Source: a bacterium (GTDB lineage: Bacteria > UBP4 > UBA4092 > JAOAEQ01). Taken from it: 37,871 nt of DNA. How positions within the stretch are numbered: position 1 is the stretch's first letter; the number at the start of each line of letters is the position of its first letter. The notes under the pieces are model-generated. The model saw only the letters and a program-made list of their open reading frames with translations, was not told the DNA's origin and did not search any database. Positions 1 to 37,871 of this stretch are shown here, piece by piece. A program made the position numbers and the translations under genes. The stretch is taken from the NCBI GenBank assembly GCA_026416715.1, contig JAOAEQ010000027.1, positions 1 to 37,871 on the forward strand, in the 5' to 3' direction.

Positions 1-296
<296 letters not shown>

Positions 297-304
297 AAAT
301 TGGA

Positions 305-372
305 CTGCAACGTTATCGTTGCAGAATAAGTTTGTCTCTCGCTCAAATAAACTGAACAAATTAACTTTGTTC
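305..372 (-). other. 16S leader hairpins, possible rRNA processing stems
   Basis: Just upstream of the 16S 5' end are two hairpins. One is an 8-bp perfect stem (305-312 with 317-324, loop ttat). The other is a 7-bp stem (354-360 with 366-372). Such stems in rRNA leaders commonly take part in processing or ribosome assembly; this role is inferred from position only. Confidence 0.5.
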
Positions 373-420
373 TACTCAAACTGAATCAACGTTTGGGACC
401 GTATATTTTCCATCCTATTT

Positions 421-440
421 AGTTTTCAAAGACCAACCGG
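421..440 (-). promoter_or_regulatory. boxA-like antitermination motif in the rRNA leader
   Basis: On the minus strand the leader reads GGTCTTTGAAAACT, close to the boxA-type TCTTTGAAAAC motif found before 16S genes of Gram-positive and many other bacteria. It lies between the proximal promoter and the 16S 5' end, where Nus-factor antitermination signals sit. Assigned by motif and position. Confidence 0.5.
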
Positions 441-494
441 ATTAAACAAACTTATCCGATTAAAGTTTAGCTCATTTAGTGAGCCGAGTTAAAT

Positions 495-522
495 ATTATA
501 TCACAATATTATAATTTGTCAA
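495..522 (-). promoter_or_regulatory. rRNA promoter P2 (proximal)
   Basis: Reading the minus strand, a perfect TTGACA (-35, 522-517) is followed after 16 bp by a perfect TATAAT (-10, 500-495). It sits ~200 bp before the 16S 5' end and gives a leader of about 190 nt. Two perfect hexamers are typical of a strong growth-rate-controlled rRNA promoter. Confidence 0.85.
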
Positions 523-620
523 GAGGGAAAATAAGAAAATAACAACTTTTTTTGAAATTATTTTTGGCAGGTTACAGCCTGACGCTTTGTAGTATTTCCC
601 TATGTATATTCTTACTAAAA

Positions 621-650
621 ATTATAATCTAATTCAGTCTTCTGTGTCAA
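621..650 (-). promoter_or_regulatory. rRNA promoter P1 (distal)
   Basis: A second minus-strand promoter has TTGACA (650-645) and TATAAT (626-621) with an 18-bp spacer, about 125 bp upstream of P2. Tandem P1-P2 promoters are the usual arrangement for rRNA operons. Confidence 0.75.
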
Positions 651-659
651 GTGTTTTTT

Positions 660-1260
660 TGATTTTTGATTATTATATTGAGTGATATTTTAGAAAAAGA
701 ATTAGCTTTTTTCAGGTTGTCCTGTCGTCATATATTAGTATTGAATTTTACGCAATTAGCGTTATTTTCAAGTTAAGGTACAATAAGAACCATTTCTACT
801 AGGAAACGAGATTCTGACAATTTATCAAAATTCGTTACTTGAATTTGTCTTCTGTGAAAAACAATTCGACGTTGTTATAAATATAAATATTTAATCAACA
901 TGGAAAGATTCAAATTTGAATTTAGCTAATTCAGAACCGAATTCAACATATTGATGTCACTGACGGTAGATTGTCTATCTCTGTCACCTTAAATTTTTCA
1001 CCACAGGAGCAAAGTTCAAGGTCAATCAGGTATAATGATGGACTTAAACCCGAATTGATCTGATCAATTCGGGTTCCTCTCTAGATTTACAATTGTAAAA
1101 AATACAATGAACTTAAAAAATATAATCTGGTAGCTTATATTTGAAAATGACTGTAGTTGAAAAAATAACAACAATATAATCTTTCTTTGATTTTCAATAA
1201 GTAGTCGTATTAATAAAAAATATTTTATAATTATATAATTATTAATTTTCAATCTTTTCT
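660..1260. other. Non-coding AT-rich gap between the rRNA promoters and the membrane protein gene
   Basis: I see no supported gene in these ~600 bp. The short minus-strand frame at 1064-1252 is AT-rich and low-complexity and I do not accept it. The only clear structure is a perfect palindrome at 1047-1075 (14-bp arms around one base), which would form a strong hairpin in RNA of either strand. It lacks a clean U-tract, so it is at best a poor intrinsic terminator. A weaker imperfect stem lies around 957-985. Confidence 0.6.
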
Positions 1261-2916
1261 ATGATTTGGCGTAAAATTTCTATCCAAATTATTCATATTA
1301 TCTTCATAATAATCCTAGGCATCAGTTCATTTATTTGGGCTATTAAAGCTGGAGAACGTGGTTTTTTCCCCTTTGACCAATCGATAGTTTTCGATGGCGG
1401 ATATCGAATTCTTTCCGGTCAAATTCCGTTTAAAGATTTTATTCTTCCCTTTGGACCTACTACCCTATGGATTCAAGCGATATTTTTTAAATTATTTGGT
1501 ATTAACTATTTTTCATATATTTTAAACGCTGCGGTTATCAATGTTTTAGCTACACTAGGAAGTATATTGATATTATATTTTCTTTTCCCAAAGCAAAAAT
1601 ATCTTGCCTATCTATGCGGTATAATCACCTTGTTTTGGTTTCAACCGCCATTCGGTACTCCTTGGTTTGAACAAACCGCATTTTTCTTTGCTATATTATC
1701 AATTATAACCTTATTAGGTTCTATGTTATATAACAGATGGCGAAAGGAATATTCCTCTTGGGGGATGTTTATTTCCGGAGTAAGCGCATTTCTTTCGTTT
1801 CTAAGCAAACAAAACGTTGGATTGTCTATGTTTTCTGTGTATTTGTTATTTCTGTTGTTTCCCTTAAAGATTGGTTGGAAACAGAAAATTAAGCATACTC
1901 TGTTTTTTTTAACAGGTGTACTATGCGGTATAGTAATATTTACTTTCTGGTTATGGCGATATGCTGATATATCGATTTTTATGAATTACTTTTTTATTAT
2001 TCCATTGAGACTCGGTATCTCACGCTTGGGGAACTTCAAAACAGACTTTTTCCCGCCATTTGATTTCGCGCCGAAAGAACATACTTTTATTTCGCTTATT
2101 ACATTTAGTAGTGCCACTTATATCATTTCACTACATTGGTATAACTTACATCGAGGAAAAAAATATTTTACGAGAGAAATATATGCAGGTTTACTTGGAA
2201 TCGGATTACTAATCGCACAATATTTATTTACTCATACGACTAATAACCAACCGGAAAATGGCGCTCCCTTTATTGGGATAATCGCAGCTATTGGTATTGG
2301 ATTATGGTTACGAATATCATCCTCCTTACAATTTCGGAATATTCTACCACAAGAATTTAAACGAACCGGAGTTACTATTAGTATAAAACTAATTCTAGGA
2401 TTAATCCTATTGTGGCTGGTAATTCAAGGTATATCTGTTGGATTAAACCGCAATGTACATGATGTATTCACTAATTCAAAATTTCCACATTATTGCGTTG
2501 AAGATAAATTATCCATACTACGTTGGGGAAATCCTACCCATATCTATGGCAGACTGTTAAAAGAAGAGGATTTTGTATATCTGCTTAATTATCTCAAACA
2601 GCAGAATAAATCAGTATTTATCTTTCCGGATTATACAATAATTTATGGATTACTGAATCTACCATCTCCACAACCCGTATTATGGTTTCATAAAGATTTG
2701 ACCTATTCCTTATCATTGAAACACAATGAGTTAGACAACTGGATAGTTAATGATTTGAAGAAAAATGGCGTAGAATTAGTCGTTTTAGAAGATATATCTT
2801 GGCTAGGAACAAACTCTCGATTAGATGATTTTCCGTATTTAAAACAATACATAATAGCTAATTTTAAGTTAAGCAATCAAATTGGGATGTTTTATATTTT
2901 TCATAAAAAGGTATAA
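1261..2916 (+). CDS. Polytopic membrane protein, GT-C/PMT-like glycosyltransferase candidate
   Basis: A 551-residue protein with about ten hydrophobic segments. The first segment (residues ~10-28) is followed by an extracytoplasmic loop containing FFPFDQSIVFDGGYR (D39, D45) and then GQIPFKDFILPFGPT. An acidic pair in the first loop, many membrane passes and a smaller soluble C-terminal part (~residues 400-551) are the layout of GT-C enzymes such as ArnT/PMT family 39, which transfer sugars from polyprenyl-phosphate donors. Donor and acceptor cannot be told. The ATG at 1261 has no visible Shine-Dalgarno, and the gene is more AT-rich than most neighbours. It stands alone, facing the pilin genes. 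The GT-C assignment is inference from topology and these motifs. Confidence 0.6.
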   Translation: MIWRKISIQIIHIIFIIILGISSFIWAIKAGERGFFPFDQSIVFDGGYRILSGQIPFKDFILPFGPTTLWIQAIFFKLFGINYFSYILNAAVINVLATLGSILILYFLFPKQKYLAYLCGIITLFWFQPPFGTPWFEQTAFFFAILSIITLLGSMLYNRWRKEYSSWGMFISGVSAFLSFLSKQNVGLSMFSVYLLFLLFPLKIGWKQKIKHTLFFLTGVLCGIVIFTFWLWRYADISIFMNYFFIIPLRLGISRLGNFKTDFFPPFDFAPKEHTFISLITFSSATYIISLHWYNLHRGKKYFTREIYAGLLGIGLLIAQYLFTHTTNNQPENGAPFIGIIAAIGIGLWLRISSSLQFRNILPQEFKRTGVTISIKLILGLILLWLVIQGISVGLNRNVHDVFTNSKFPHYCVEDKLSILRWGNPTHIYGRLLKEEDFVYLLNYLKQQNKSVFIFPDYTIIYGLLNLPSPQPVLWFHKDLTYSLSLKHNELDNWIVNDLKKNGVELVVLEDISWLGTNSRLDDFPYLKQYIIANFKLSNQIGMFYIFHKKV

Positions 2917-3044: not shown

Positions 3045-3617
3045 CTATTGGTTAAATCCCGCTCGACCAACACCATACTTCTGGGTACGATAAATATCAC
3101 CATTACTAACCGTTCCATTTGATGGGTCGTAATATTGATTTTCTGCTGTTTCCGAATCCCGATCCGGACCAAGTGACCATAACCGCCACATTCCATCACC
3201 TTCGGTCCCTTGTGGATAGGTAACCGTAGCGTTTCCTCCACGCGTCGCCCAATTTACATACCGATATCGTTCACCAATTCGTTCAGTTGAACCACCAGGA
3301 TTTCTCAACACAGCAAAAGGATCATAGAGTTTATTACTTGTAATATATGTAATCGGTGTACTTATGGCATTCGGCAAATAGAATGGCCATGCTGGAGGCC
3401 AACCTAAAAAATCTAGCGGATAAAATGTATTATCTACATAATACGATTCAAGTGCCGTAGCAATTGTTTGGTGCTCTTTTTTAACTTGAGATACTTTTGC
3501 TCGAGTCTGTGCGGCGAGAAAGTTCGGTATCGCTATCGCAGCGAGAATCGCAATTATCGCTACCACAATCAGCAACTCAATTAACGTAAACCCAAAATTC
3601 TTTTTGTTAAGTTTCAT
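3045..3617 (-). CDS. Type II secretion/type IV pilin-like pseudopilin (copy 1)
   Basis: A 190-residue protein with a class III signal: short basic leader, cleavage after Gly9 in KKNFG|FTLIE with Glu at +5, then a hydrophobic helix ending AIPNFLAAQTRAKVS. The mature part has YYVDNTFYP, a Gly/Pro-rich middle and a C-terminal WSLGPD...YDPSNG stretch like the GspG/DUF1559 pseudopilins. After cleavage by a prepilin peptidase it should sit in the inner membrane and may join a filament. The start at 3617 follows GGGGGTGA on the minus strand. It lies downstream of copy 2 but behind that gene's terminator, so it probably has its own promoter. No assembly genes are in the window. Confidence 0.85.
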   Translation of the reverse strand: MKLNKKNFGFTLIELLIVVAIIAILAAIAIPNFLAAQTRAKVSQVKKEHQTIATALESYYVDNTFYPLDFLGWPPAWPFYLPNAISTPITYITSNKLYDPFAVLRNPGGSTERIGERYRYVNWATRGGNATVTYPQGTEGDGMWRLWSLGPDRDSETAENQYYDPSNGTVSNGDIYRTQKYGVGRAGFNQ

Positions 3618-3767: not shown

Positions 3768-4445
3768 TTATTCCACACCCATGTCTGTTAGTGAACCGTA
3801 TTCCGTTCTATGGTCAGCTTCTTTCTGCGAACGAATCACATCACCCCAACTCATCGTGCCATTGGTTGGATCGTATAGAAGCGCATTAGCATCCCAAACA
3901 TATTGCGGCGGAATAGTCACGCCTTTATAGATCAACCCTGCATAAGGACCTGCGGTGCCATCCGGTCCGCAAGAAGATAACCGCCATTTACCATAATTCC
4001 ACCGACCTTTTTTAGCCGACTCTCGACCAACCAAATCTGGCCAGTTAGCTCCGTATCGGTTATCATAGTGCCCATTTACTTCACAATCATAATTGATATA
4101 CCGATAACGGTCCCCAGGATACATCCCACCATAAATTCCAATCGGTCGCATTAAATCTCGAAGCTTACCACTGGCAATATACGCTACCGGCGTACTGATA
4201 CAATCCGGAACATACCATGGCCAACCACCACTGTGTAATATCAAATCATCCGGATATGCCGTGTTATCTACATAATACGCTTCCAACGCCGTGGCTAACG
4301 ATTTCATCTCACCTTTCGCTCGGGTTACCTTTGCTCGAGTCTGTGCGGCGAGAAAGTTCGGTATCGCTATCGCAGCGAGAATCGCAATAATCGCTACCAC
4401 AATCAATAACTCAATTAACGTAAATCCAAAATTCTTTTTACTCAT
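3768..4445 (-). CDS. Type II secretion/type IV pilin-like pseudopilin (copy 2)
   Basis: A 225-residue protein with leader SKKNFG|FTLIE (cleavage after Gly7, Glu at +5) and the same hydrophobic helix as copy 1. The globular part continues with YYVDNTAYPDD, WYVPDCISTPVAY, a long Gly/Tyr-rich region and WRLSSCGPDG, then YDPTNGTMSWGD. It is ~35 residues longer than copy 1 in the variable C-terminal half. A strong AAAGGAGGTGA lies upstream of ATG 4445. Its first ~110 bp are almost identical in DNA to copy 1, pointing to recent duplication or gene conversion. Role as a filament or secretion pseudopilin is from family knowledge; substrate unknown. Confidence 0.85.
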   Translation of the reverse strand: MSKKNFGFTLIELLIVVAIIAILAAIAIPNFLAAQTRAKVTRAKGEMKSLATALEAYYVDNTAYPDDLILHSGGWPWYVPDCISTPVAYIASGKLRDLMRPIGIYGGMYPGDRYRYINYDCEVNGHYDNRYGANWPDLVGRESAKKGRWNYGKWRLSSCGPDGTAGPYAGLIYKGVTIPPQYVWDANALLYDPTNGTMSWGDVIRSQKEADHRTEYGSLTDMGVE

Positions 4446-34868: not shown

Positions 34869-37800
34869 TTATTTCACCACTAGTTCAATCGGCTGGGATA
34901 GACTTGCTACTTGCGGATTATAATATTCATACACTTTCGATTGCGGGGTTTTCGCCCGAATCGGATATTTCGCTTGCAACCGATACTTGAACGTAATCGG
35001 TTTTCCAGCTTCAACTTTATCCAAGTAAACAATTATTTGCCGACCGGTGAGATTATACTTTTTGATAACATCTTTAGTAACCAACTCATGCAAATCCGGT
35101 GTTAACACATCAAATCCCGGCGGGATACCTAAATCGACGATAACCATATTTGCAGTACCTGTTGGCCGGTTATTTTTAACCTCGATCCTTGCGGTGATAA
35201 TATCGTCTTTCTGCAACTGGGTTTTATCGTAGGTTACGGAGATATCCAGCAGTTCATGTTCTGGAATCTCCAATCTCCACGGACGATAATAGGTTCCAAC
35301 AATCTGATACAACATGCTCCCCTGCCCTTGAAACTTTAAGACAACGGTATTTTTGCCTCTTTTAACCAGCGGTTCTTTCAAATCTACCTGCCGCATCACA
35401 TCGCAGTTTGCCGGCGTGATTTCAAACGCAGAAACTTCTTTTCCGTTAACGATTACCTGCACTGTTGCATTCACTTTTTCAGTCAATCCCTGTAACGACA
35501 TTAACAGCGCTTTCAAGCAGAGAATTGTTGCCTGAGTCGAATTCCAGTTCCCGTTCGCATCTTTTTTGCTAATGATATAGTTCAGCGCTTTCCCGGTAAC
35601 ATCCGGATACCGACCGGCGTTCATTAACGCAATCGCAATCAATGCGGTTGATTCGATATCCGCGCTATCTCCGCGTGAGAATGTTACCGTCTCAACGTTA
35701 CTCGACCAATGCACTTTGCCATCTTGTTCAATTTTCTGCGCAACAATTTTATCCAGCAGGCCGAGCGTTCGCGAGTCATCCTTCTTCCAGCAGACTAGCG
35801 CATTCGCTAGTAACGCTTGCGTATAGATATCGTTAGCTTCTTTGCTATGTTGCAGTAAATACTCGACCGCTTTCTCTATCTCTTTCGATTTCATATCCGT
35901 TGCCAATAATGCCCAGGTGATATATGCGGTAACCAAAAGATTGCTATTCTGAATCTTACCCCAGCTTTCTGCGTGAAGATATGATTTATCCGGTGTCCAG
36001 GAGCCGTCCTGATTCTGCTGGTGAATTAACCACGACTGCGTCCGGCTGATTATCGCCGGGTCAACGTTGAACACTTTCGACATATCGCTGAACTCCATAA
36101 CACCCCATGCGGTCAGAATTTTGTTCGCCGGCGCGTTCCCAAACCATTCGAATCCGCCGCCTTGCACTTCATAACTCAACAACCGCTGGTATCCGGCATT
36201 GATGAACCCTTCTGCTTTCATTTGGATTTCCGGAGTAACCTGTTTTGTGGTTTTCAGATAATCAAGCACTAGAATATTCGGATAGGTTACCGATGACGTC
36301 TGTTCGAAACAACCGAATGGCATCCGCAGCATACTCGCTAATCCTTCAACAATTTGACTGAATATTCCTGGATATACTTTCACCTGCAGTTTACTGGCCT
36401 TCTCAATTGCTTCCTGGGGAATAGTAATTTCCTTTTCGATATCTTTACTCAACCGGTCACTAATACTCACCTGATATTCTTTCCCATCCGGTACGACTGC
36501 AATCATCCGCTGAATCGCATCGCTTAACTTGCTGCCATAGGCATAGACCGTGAACTTATGGTAACCGATTTCTTTAACCTTAATTGAATAATATACCGCA
36601 CGGACTTCATCTTTTTCGAGTTTAACCGTTTTGATTTTTTCATCTTTCAACTCAAACCACGGTTCCGGCATCAATTCTAATCGAACGGTTTGTGCGCCTG
36701 GCAGATAGTTATACACCGCTACCGGAACACTAATTTCATCATTTTGCGTTAATGCTACCGGGAAATCAATATCTATAAAGAAATCCTGAAATACCCGCAA
36801 CGGTGAACTCGTACTACCCATTCTACCGTTTAATGCGGAACCGAGCGTGGTCATCCGCCAAGAAGTAATCGAATCTGCTATTGTAAGTTTGAGTGTTCCT
36901 TTTCCGGTAGCATCGGTGATAAATGCCGGGTTGAAATATAATGTTTCCGGGAAAAACATTCGCAACCGAATTTCTTCTTTCGGCTGACTTCCAGCGATAC
37001 CAACTTCGCCTTTTGCAATACCTCGCTCTTCCGCCATTTTCATTGCTACAATTGGCATTGGTTCAGGATGTGCCGCTAAATCGCCTAAAAATCCATTCCT
37101 AGCATTTAAGAACCTGCGCACTGCCTGTCGGGCTACACCTTCGCCGAACTGATCCCAACCTGCAGGCGATGTAACATCATCAGCAGTATTCCAGACCGTA
37201 TCCGGTCCTGCGGAAAGCAACCTAAAACTATGGAATCTGCCGCAACTACACGGTTCCGCTTTATACCTCACGCCCCACGGATCTATTAAATCCGTCTCCC
37301 GCAGGAATCCTTCTTTAATCAGGATTTCAATTCCTTGCTCCCTCGTCGGATATTCGCTATGTTTATTATAATACGCTTGGATTCCTTTCCAAATATGCTG
37401 ATAATCTTTATCGAGTCGTTTCTGGATTTGTTCCCGATACTTCAGTTCTTTTTGATCGAAAGTATTAATCGCGAGCGTAAACGGTTGCGGTTCCGGTGCG
37501 GATGCGAGCAGAACTGTTGCTGCTTCCTGCTGGAGTGGAGTCCAATCCGCTTTTGTATTTTGTTCGAGTGGAATCACTGGCGGTTGCGGATGCTTAACCA
37601 GTTCTTCGAGCGAATACCCGTGAATTTCATATCGCGGTTTCATAATCTCTTTTTCGAGCGTGAAATATACCTTCTCTAATCCCGGCTGCATATCCTGCAA
37701 TGCGAACACCGCTTCATCCACAATTGAGATACCTAACGCTGCGAGAACCGGATGTCCGGTCTTATCCTGAACGAAAAATTGCACGGTCGCTTCTTCGCCT

Positions 37801-37871
37801 GGTCGGTACGTCTTCTTGTCCGGTGTGATGACGATGCGCAGTTCATCTGCCGGATTGACATAGACTAATCG
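34869..37871 (-). CDS. Alpha-2-macroglobulin-like protein, C-terminal 1000 residues (partial), with inserted GspG-like domain
   Basis: The frame is open to the window edge, so the N-terminus is missing; the GTG at 37784 is not the start. Order in the fragment: macroglobulin domain (PDKKTYRPGEEATVQFFV...), ISIVDEAVFALQ, PRYEIHGY, then a GspG-like pseudopilin domain (residues ~155-233). Next come the FPETLYFNP and ITSWRM segments, the thioester motif GCFEQ (Cys521, Gln524), the helical thioester domain with repeated alpha units, and a receptor-binding-like C-terminus (YDKTQLQKDD, YYNPQV). Bacterial relatives are envelope or periplasmic proteins thought to trap foreign proteases by covalent thioester attack. 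The intact Cys-x-Glu-Gln suggests it is functional. The penicillin-binding partner pbpC is not seen. Confidence 0.92.
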   Translation of the reverse strand, partial: RLVYVNPADELRIVITPDKKTYRPGEEATVQFFVQDKTGHPVLAALGISIVDEAVFALQDMQPGLEKVYFTLEKEIMKPRYEIHGYSLEELVKHPQPPVIPLEQNTKADWTPLQQEAATVLLASAPEPQPFTLAINTFDQKELKYREQIQKRLDKDYQHIWKGIQAYYNKHSEYPTREQGIEILIKEGFLRETDLIDPWGVRYKAEPCSCGRFHSFRLLSAGPDTVWNTADDVTSPAGWDQFGEGVARQAVRRFLNARNGFLGDLAAHPEPMPIVAMKMAEERGIAKGEVGIAGSQPKEEIRLRMFFPETLYFNPAFITDATGKGTLKLTIADSITSWRMTTLGSALNGRMGSTSSPLRVFQDFFIDIDFPVALTQNDEISVPVAVYNYLPGAQTVRLELMPEPWFELKDEKIKTVKLEKDEVRAVYYSIKVKEIGYHKFTVYAYGSKLSDAIQRMIAVVPDGKEYQVSISDRLSKDIEKEITIPQEAIEKASKLQVKVYPGIFSQIVEGLASMLRMPFGCFEQTSSVTYPNILVLDYLKTTKQVTPEIQMKAEGFINAGYQRLLSYEVQGGGFEWFGNAPANKILTAWGVMEFSDMSKVFNVDPAIISRTQSWLIHQQNQDGSWTPDKSYLHAESWGKIQNSNLLVTAYITWALLATDMKSKEIEKAVEYLLQHSKEANDIYTQALLANALVCWKKDDSRTLGLLDKIVAQKIEQDGKVHWSSNVETVTFSRGDSADIESTALIAIALMNAGRYPDVTGKALNYIISKKDANGNWNSTQATILCLKALLMSLQGLTEKVNATVQVIVNGKEVSAFEITPANCDVMRQVDLKEPLVKRGKNTVVLKFQGQGSMLYQIVGTYYRPWRLEIPEHELLDISVTYDKTQLQKDDIITARIEVKNNRPTGTANMVIVDLGIPPGFDVLTPDLHELVTKDVIKKYNLTGRQIIVYLDKVEAGKPITFKYRLQAKYPIRAKTPQSKVYEYYNPQVASLSQPIELVVK

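What the first reader, a model, noticed from the sequence alone, without database searches (positions are those of the whole stretch)
37170..37410. GspG-like pseudopilin domain inside an alpha-2-macroglobulin protein
Between the ALGISIVDEAVFALQ/PRYEIHGY part and the next conserved segment lies a ~80-residue stretch reading IQAYYNKHSEYPTREQGIEI, DPWGVRYKAE, FRLLSAGPD and NTADDV. This is the core pattern of the type II secretion major pseudopilin GspG C-terminal domain (YPT.EQGL, DPWG..Y, SAGPD...DD), without its N-terminal helix. The position is near where macroglobulins carry protease-sensitive inserts. The two pseudopilins at 3-4.4 kb share the same GPD-type ending. A pseudopilin fold in a protease trap could serve as bait, as a calcium-stabilised spacer, or tie the protein to a secretion filament.
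Basis: partly seen in the sequence, partly recalled or inferred. Interest (0 to 1): 0.65.

Follow-up and report, generated by a model that had tools for sequence, protein, structure and literature searches.

The report
Pseudopilin domain inside bacterial protease trap
A bacterial relative of the blood protein alpha-2-macroglobulin, which catches proteases when they bite its bait, carries in the bait region a calcium-binding domain otherwise known from secretion-system filaments, and this fusion is conserved across many bacterial phyla.

Summary
Residues 154-231 of the window's macroglobulin fragment (window 37179-37412, minus strand) match Pfam T2SSG above the curated cut-off. A profile of 47 homologous inserts finds GspG structures first in the PDB (3g20, E=2e-11). 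An AlphaFold model (pLDDT 92) has only GspG structures as its 13 best matches. The domain is not peculiar to this genome. It marks one clade of 74 thioester macroglobulins from about a dozen phyla, always between the MG6 'VDE(A/S)VFAL' strand and the 'RxxFPET' start of the next domain. That is where animal macroglobulins have the bait and C3-C5 the anaphylatoxin. The Ca loop G-x-D-x6-D-D is conserved (D3 and D10 73/73). The prepilin N-terminus is absent. About 65 disordered, fast-evolving residues follow the domain and are the likely bait. I favour a Ca-stabilised folded module in the bait loop beside a 'plug-in-channel' trigger: cleavage in the linker fires the trap, cleavage before the module may not. 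Docking to a secretion filament is unsupported: 15 of 40 carrier genomes lack a GspG above cut-off, and there is no linked operon. The mechanism is inferred. New variant of a known kind.

The parts
34869..37871 (-). C-terminal 1000 aa of a thioester alpha-2-macroglobulin; the frame runs off the contig end
   Evidence: Pfam A2M, TED_complement and A2M_recep; Foldseek best matches are vertebrate A2M, A2ML1, CD109 and C3
37602..37871 (-). MG6 first part (VDEAVFAL strand) and the conserved segment PGLEKVYFTLEKEIMKPRYEIHGY just before the insert (residues 1-90)
   Evidence: conservation in 35 homologues
37467..37547 (-). short helix and loop before the domain (consensus AAxVLFAS....NTY, residues 109-135); by eye kept also in the transmembrane-insert relatives
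   Evidence: consensus; predicted helix; sequences
37167..37463 (-). GspG/T2SSG-type pseudopilin domain (residues 137-235; Pfam match residues 154-231 = 37179-37412)
37272..37283 (-). DPWG signature (residues 197-200); its D is invariant
37176..37208 (-). Ca-binding loop GPDTVWNTADD (residues 222-232), equivalent to GPDGVPNTEDD that binds Ca2+ in GspG 3g20
   Evidence: Ca ligands in 3g20 described in PMC3396595
36969..37166 (-). variable, predicted-disordered linker between the domain and MG7 (residues 236-301); likely bait
   Evidence: pLDDT below 50 for residues 239-297; least conserved long stretch, Ala/Gly-rich; fastest-evolving in most pairs
36951..36962 (-). R304-x-x-F307 directly before PET, aligned with R732-x-x-F735, the channel 'plug' of human A2M
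   Evidence: invariant R304 and F307; alignment to human A2M; RxxF in 71/74; role from PMC9352918
36672..36944 (-). A2M domain (MG7, PF00207)
35505..36359 (-). thioester domain (PF07678, residues 505-789)
36300..36311 (-). thioester motif C-F-E-Q (residues 521-524)
   Evidence: invariant in 35 homologues
34911..35156 (-). receptor-binding-type C-terminal domain (PF07677, residues 906-987)

Best explanation
This is a secreted, thioester-type bacterial alpha-2-macroglobulin of a widespread clade whose bait region contains a folded, calcium-stabilised GspG-type domain. Shown by computation: the domain's identity, its site, its conservation and its Ca-loop residues; the intact thioester motif; and conservation of the sequence pieces of the animal trigger (the RxxF plug before FPET and the VLPKF linker that lines the channel). 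Inferred mechanism: the chain leaves MG6, forms a short helix and the GspG domain on the outer side of the ring, continues as a disordered linker of about 65 residues (the bait), and threads back through the MG2-MG3 channel into MG7. A protease that cuts the linker frees the plug, the channel collapses, the thioester is exposed and the protease is covalently caught. The folded domain holds the loop out as a protected, Ca-dependent spacer and stopper. Cuts in the linker fire the trap, whereas nicks inside or before the domain may not, because the domain is too bulky to pull through the channel. This parallels the C3/C5 anaphylatoxin domain, which sits at the same site with an unrelated fold.
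For: Domain identity. Site immediately before the point aligned with human A2M VEEPHTETVRKYFPETW. Disordered linker (residues 239-297, pLDDT below 50) next to a confidently folded domain (blocks 85-90). Conservation gradient TED 0.66, T2SSG 0.42, linker 0.27. Mostly low dN/dS of the domain (about 0.06-0.5) with a usually higher value in the linker. Ca loop G 73/73, D3 73/73, D10 73/73, D11 71/73. One origin in a clade of 74, SH-aLRT 95, on a tree built without the insert. Trigger pieces: RxxF 71/74, VLPKF-like 52/54 full-length, MPxGCFEQ in 69 of 74. The own N-terminal half on contig C32 has a hydrophobic N-terminus that looks like a signal peptide, MG2-MG4 and YVLPKF. Plug-in-channel trigger, including the finding that cleavage inside a closed loop does not fire human A2M: PMC9352918.
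Against: No experiment on any member is known to me or was found. The 1000-aa model lacks the N-terminal half, so the channel itself was not modelled and the domain's placement relative to it is inferred. The window's Ca loop has Thr where the strict PERCAL motif has Gly; only 19 of 74 sequences match the strict motif. Artificial Gly-Ser baits work in human A2M (PMC9352918), so a folded module is not needed for the trigger, and why it is kept is open.
Confidence: 0.5

Rival explanations
1. Docking handle: the GspG-type domain binds the type II secretion or type IV pilus machinery, or a periplasmic partner, and so localises the trap or lets it be exported.
For: All 40 carrier genomes tested have a secretin. 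GspG over cut-off in 25/40 carriers against 58/145 in a relatives sample. Relatives with transmembrane helices at the same site lack GspG over cut-off in 9/9 genomes, so the module tracks diderm-like hosts.
Against: No alpha1N helix or prepilin site, so it cannot polymerise as a pseudopilin does. 15/40 carriers lack GspG over cut-off, among them a record described as a single WOR-3 chromosome (L070). No conserved neighbours, and prepilin-like neighbours in only 4 loci. Secretins are common in diderms, so the enrichment is confounded by ancestry.
Confidence: 0.17
2. Releasable signal or effector: cutting on both sides of the domain releases it, as anaphylatoxins are released from C3-C5, and the free domain acts on other proteins.
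For: Same site as the anaphylatoxin; low-confidence linkers on both sides (residues 56-136 in part, and 239-297). The site has accepted other modules (CarboxypepD_reg in L115, a weak dockerin match in L107).
Against: No receptor candidate; the upstream segment (residues 61-90) is highly conserved rather than bait-like; nothing shows a second cut.
Confidence: 0.1
3. Passenger module: the domain was inserted once in a permissive loop and is kept only because its loss would misfold or over-expose the loop; it has no role of its own.
For: Large loops without this domain work in animals. The same site carries transmembrane helices in sister clades. The domain is less conserved than MG6 and TED.
Against: No loss seen within a clade of 74 from many phyla; aspartates of the Ca loop almost invariant; purifying selection.
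Confidence: 0.18
4. The domain itself is the bait, cleaved when Ca2+ is lost, so the trap is armed by low calcium.
For: GspG needs Ca2+ to fold its C-terminal region correctly (PMC6692295).
Against: High-confidence compact fold and selection on it, while an obvious disordered linker lies beside it. Not tested.
Confidence: 0.05

Closest known systems
GspG / PulG / EpsG major pseudopilin (T2SSG, PF08334; PDB 3g20, 1t92, 5o2y)
   Same: soluble domain: helix alpha1 second half, YPT..QG turn, DPWG, beta hairpin, Ca loop G-P-D-x6-D-D; top sequence and fold match
   Different: no prepilin N-terminus or transmembrane helix; embedded in the middle of a macroglobulin; not in a secretion operon
Human alpha-2-macroglobulin, A2ML1, CD109
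   Same: MG domains, bait site, RxxFPET plug, CxEQ thioester domain and receptor-binding domain; profile E=5e-98 to human A2M
   Different: a folded GspG-type domain in the bait region; bacterial
E. coli YfhM (ECAM) and Salmonella Sa-A2M, type I bacterial A2M
   Same: bacterial, thioester-containing protease trap
   Different: much more distant in sequence than human A2M (E=2.5e-8); membrane-anchored lipoprotein and PBP1C operon in ECAM-type proteins (PMC4498604, PMC5764988), neither seen here; no inserted domain described in the passages read
Complement C3/C4/C5 with the anaphylatoxin domain
   Same: a folded domain inserted at the same site of the same scaffold, before the alpha'NT strand that threads the channel
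   Different: the anaphylatoxin is an unrelated helical domain; no evidence of release here
PERCAL Ca-binding motif in bacterial animal-type peroxidases (PMC3396595)
   Same: G-x-D-x6-D-D loop, and pseudopilin 3g20 as its structural reference
   Different: there an 11-residue loop inserted in peroxidase domains; here the whole GspG domain

Membership tests
GspG-type pseudopilin domain (T2SSG) | profile match above curated cut-off | tested here: met
   24-29 bits vs 21; 36 of 47 homologues match at E<=0.01
GspG-type pseudopilin domain (T2SSG) | pseudopilin fold | tested here: met
   Foldseek top 13 all GspG, 3g20 E=2.7e-4, probability 1.00, TM 0.52/0.60
GspG-type pseudopilin domain (T2SSG) | Ca loop G-x-D-x6-D-D | tested here: met
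   window GPDTVWNTADD; D3 and D10 73/73, D11 71/73
Major pseudopilin GspG as a filament subunit | prepilin cleavage/methylation site and alpha1N membrane helix | tested here: not met
   no N_methyl match in the A2M, which the two window pilins have; no hydrophobic segment in the region
Major pseudopilin GspG as a filament subunit | encoded with T2SS genes | tested here: not met
   no conserved neighbour families; prepilin-like ORFs in 4 loci only
Thioester (type I) alpha-2-macroglobulin | CxEQ thioester in a TED | tested here: met
   CFEQ, residues 521-524, invariant; TED_complement 180 bits
Thioester (type I) alpha-2-macroglobulin | MG1-MG7 ring with bait position | tested here: met
   A2M and receptor domains; MG2-MG4 and part of A2M_BRD on the N-terminal half in contig C32
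Thioester (type I) alpha-2-macroglobulin | traps a protease after bait cleavage | not testable with these tools
   needs biochemistry
ECAM-type bacterial A2M | lipobox anchor and PBP1C neighbour | tested here: not met
   own N-terminus has no lipobox; no PBP1C family recurs next to homologues
Anaphylatoxin-bearing complement factor | anaphylatoxin fold at the site | tested here: not met
   fold is GspG
Strict PERCAL motif G-x-D-G-x2-[GN]-[TN]-x-D-D | Gly at position 4 | tested here: not met
   Thr in the window; 19 of 74 homologues match the strict motif

The most novel reading that the evidence does not exclude
A bacterial counterpart of the complement architecture: a clade of secreted thioester traps independently placed a folded, Ca-dependent domain in the bait loop, where it sets which cuts fire the trap (or is released on firing). 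The same site was filled with other modules in sister clades (transmembrane helices) and within the clade (regulatory-like domains), so the bait region is an evolvable module port.
Probability: 0.3. Interest if true: 0.75.

Novelty: new variant of a known kind. Interest (0 to 1): 0.55.

Why it matters
Macroglobulin baits are usually described as disordered stretches, and how cleavage triggers the trap has only recently been worked out. A natural bait region with a folded, metal-stabilised domain tests the plug-in-channel model: which side of the domain must be cut, and must the domain be able to pass the channel. It also shows a filament-subunit domain reused as a soluble module, parallels the anaphylatoxin of complement, and offers a natural design for protease traps gated by calcium or by cleavage position.

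Tried and rejected
Chance match: rejected, since 36 of 47 homologues match independently and the profile and fold both return GspG first. Assembly or frame artefact: rejected, since the same fusion occurs in unrelated assemblies and no stop interrupts it; the contig break lies upstream of the insert. A lineage-specific accident: rejected by the one-clade result across phyla. Tether to a secretion filament: tested by neighbours and by presence of GspG and secretin; not supported. Similarity of bacterial 'RYEIHGY' to a short stretch I remember in the human bait: not tested, not used. The key Ca paper (Korotkov 2009) is not held, so ligands are taken from PMC3396595. Literature: no held paper contains both 'macroglobulin' and 'pseudopilin', and none pairs alpha-2-macroglobulin with T2SSG. 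Subscription journals and domain-architecture databases were not searched, so prior notice as a listed Pfam architecture is possible.

Full report
WHAT IS THERE. The window's minus strand from 37871 down to 34869 is one open frame of 1000 codons that begins off the contig. It holds Pfam A2M, thioester (TED) and receptor-binding domains, with T2SSG (PF08334) at residues 154-231, 24 bits against a curated cut-off of 21. The genome-wide search gives the same place at 27.5 bits among 14 T2SSG matches, of which two (contigs C1 and C19) are genuine GspG by the NCBIfam model as well. The genome has one A2M-domain gene. Its N-terminal half lies at the edge of contig C32 (positions 3-1847, minus strand): a hydrophobic N-terminus that looks like a signal peptide without lipobox, MG2, MG3, MG4 and the start of the bait-region domain. 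Together about 1615 residues are seen, close to the 1610 of the nearest homologue; the join itself is not sequenced.

IS IT A PSEUDOPILIN DOMAIN. Yes, in sequence and predicted fold. I aligned 47 inserts from homologues (A1). Thirty-six match T2SSG on their own. A profile of them finds GspG chains of several proteobacteria first in the PDB, E=2.2e-11 for 3g20, with no other molecule below 0.006. The AlphaFold model of the window insert has mean pLDDT 91.9, and the 13 best Foldseek matches are all GspG. The E-value (2.7e-4) and TM-scores (0.52/0.60) are moderate; part of that is probably the extra N-terminal helix and the shorter alpha-beta loop. What is missing is the prepilin cleavage site and the membrane half of helix alpha1, so this is a GspG-type domain and not a filament subunit.

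WHERE IT SITS. Directly before the A2M domain, at 'VRKYFPETW' in human A2M (alignment), and after the MG6 strand 'VDEAVFAL'. In animals this interval holds the bait, and in C3-C5 the anaphylatoxin (established knowledge; PMC9352918 discusses the ANA domain and the alpha'NT strand). In the model of the whole fragment the domain is confident (blocks 85-90), and residues 239-297 between it and MG7 are below 50. This linker is the least conserved long stretch (mean commonest-residue frequency 0.27, against 0.42 for the domain and 0.66 for the TED), rich in Ala and Gly. In closely related pairs the domain mostly evolves under purifying selection (dN/dS roughly 0.06-0.5) and the linker usually faster (some pairs are saturated at synonymous sites).

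HOW WIDESPREAD. One scan of named genomes returned 80 loci from Poribacteria, Armatimonadota, Hydrogenedentota, Cloacimonadota, WOR-3/Stahlbacteria, Zixibacteria, Zipacnadia, Hebobacteria, Planctomycetota, Acidobacteriota, Deltaproteobacteria, Chloroflexi and others, mostly metagenome bins whose labels I did not check. On a tree from MG7 to the end of the TED (insert left out), all 74 sequences with the domain form one side of a branch (SH-aLRT 95). The 4 Chloroflexi sequences with six hydrophobic segments at the same site are their sister, and the 5 Clostridia sequences with two are next. Three changes explain everything, the least possible. It is a quick tree, long branches are present among the outgroups, and loci were sampled by similarity to the window, so true frequency is not estimated.

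CALCIUM. In GspG 3g20 the loop GPDGVPNTEDD holds Ca2+, and a peptide with this consensus binds Ca2+ with Kd 33-79 uM (PMC3396595). The aligned loop in the window is GPDTVWNTADD. Across 73 sequences G1, D3 and D10 are invariant, D11 is D in 71 and E in 2, T8 is T in 64. Ca2+ binding is therefore likely but untested. The strict PERCAL motif is matched by only 19 of 74.

TRIGGER PARTS. In human A2M the strand after the bait (R732, F735) is threaded through a channel lined by the MG2-MG3 linker (F224-V225-L226); cleavage lets it retract, and cleavage within a closed loop does not fire the trap (PMC9352918). Here R304 and F307 are invariant in 35 homologues, RxxF is found in 71 of 74, a VLPKF-like linker in 52 of 54 full-length proteins, and the MPxGCFEQ thioester in 69 of 74. 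The own N-terminal half has 'YVLPKF'. So the sequence elements of the trigger are present; that they work the same way is inference. By sequence these proteins are far nearer to human A2M (E=5e-98) than to E. coli YfhM (2.5e-8), and the fold search agrees.

FUNCTION. I favour a folded, Ca-stabilised module held in the bait loop. It keeps the cleavable linker exposed and acts as a stopper, so that cuts after it fire the trap and cuts before it may not. The step from anatomy to stopper is inferred. The secretion-filament idea was tested indirectly. All 40 carrier genomes have secretins, but only 25 of 40 have GspG over cut-off, against 58 of 145 in a relatives sample. Neighbour genes are not conserved, and prepilin-like neighbours occur at 4 loci. 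This does not exclude a partner in the envelope, and the contrast with the transmembrane-insert relatives (0 of 9 with GspG over cut-off) is confounded by cell-envelope type.

KNOWN OR NEW. Each part is known; the combination was not found in the held literature, which omits most subscription journals, and Pfam's own architecture lists could not be checked. I call it a new variant of a known kind.

Noticed in passing
L118, L119, L121, L122, L123 (Defluviitaleaceae/Oscillospiraceae bins), bait-region site: The same site holds two hydrophobic segments; the second follows positive charges and ends in a lipobox-like [LF]-[AST]-S-C ('FLASC-AG', 'FLTSC-SS'). This could be an internal lipoprotein signal peptide that would make a two-chain, lipid-anchored macroglobulin.
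   Followed up: partly
L096, L105, L116, L117 (Chloroflexi/Anaerolineae), bait-region site: Six or so predicted transmembrane segments lie in the middle of the macroglobulin at the site where the sister clade has the GspG domain.
   Followed up: partly
L115 6286-7100 (and by eye L099-L104, L114, L120), Acidobacteria: A carboxypeptidase-regulatory-like domain (PF13620) follows the GspG-type region in the bait region.
   Followed up: partly
L107 6295-7000: GspG domain followed by a dockerin-like stretch (PF00404, below its cut-off, E=0.004) in the bait linker.
   Followed up: partly
L019 1057-1725: Insert about 90 residues longer, with what looks by eye like a second, degenerate GspG-like copy ('DAWG') before the intact one.
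   Followed up: no
L017, linker before FPET: A CxxCH haem-type motif (CAQCHEPHS) in the bait linker; weak Paired_CXXCH match.
   Followed up: no
L125 (contig C32) 5504-9958, minus strand: Two genes upstream of the macroglobulin start, on the same strand, is a large secreted-looking C25 (gingipain-type) peptidase with CARDB repeats, separated by a glnE-like gene. A possible endogenous target of the trap, untested.
   Followed up: partly
window 34869-37871: This bacterial clade is much closer to animal A2M/complement than to E. coli YfhM by profile score (5e-98 vs 2.5e-8), which bears on where animal macroglobulins came from.
   Followed up: no
window 3045-3617 and 3768-4445, minus strand: Two adjacent prepilin-type proteins with nearly identical N-terminal helices and a 'GPD' but no Ca-loop D-D; the genome has at least 26 matches to the GspG model, mostly pilin N-termini.
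   Followed up: partly
window residues 505-789 of the frame: The thioester domain also matches squalene-hopene cyclase C-terminal models (39-42 bits), as expected for two alpha/alpha toroids.
   Followed up: no
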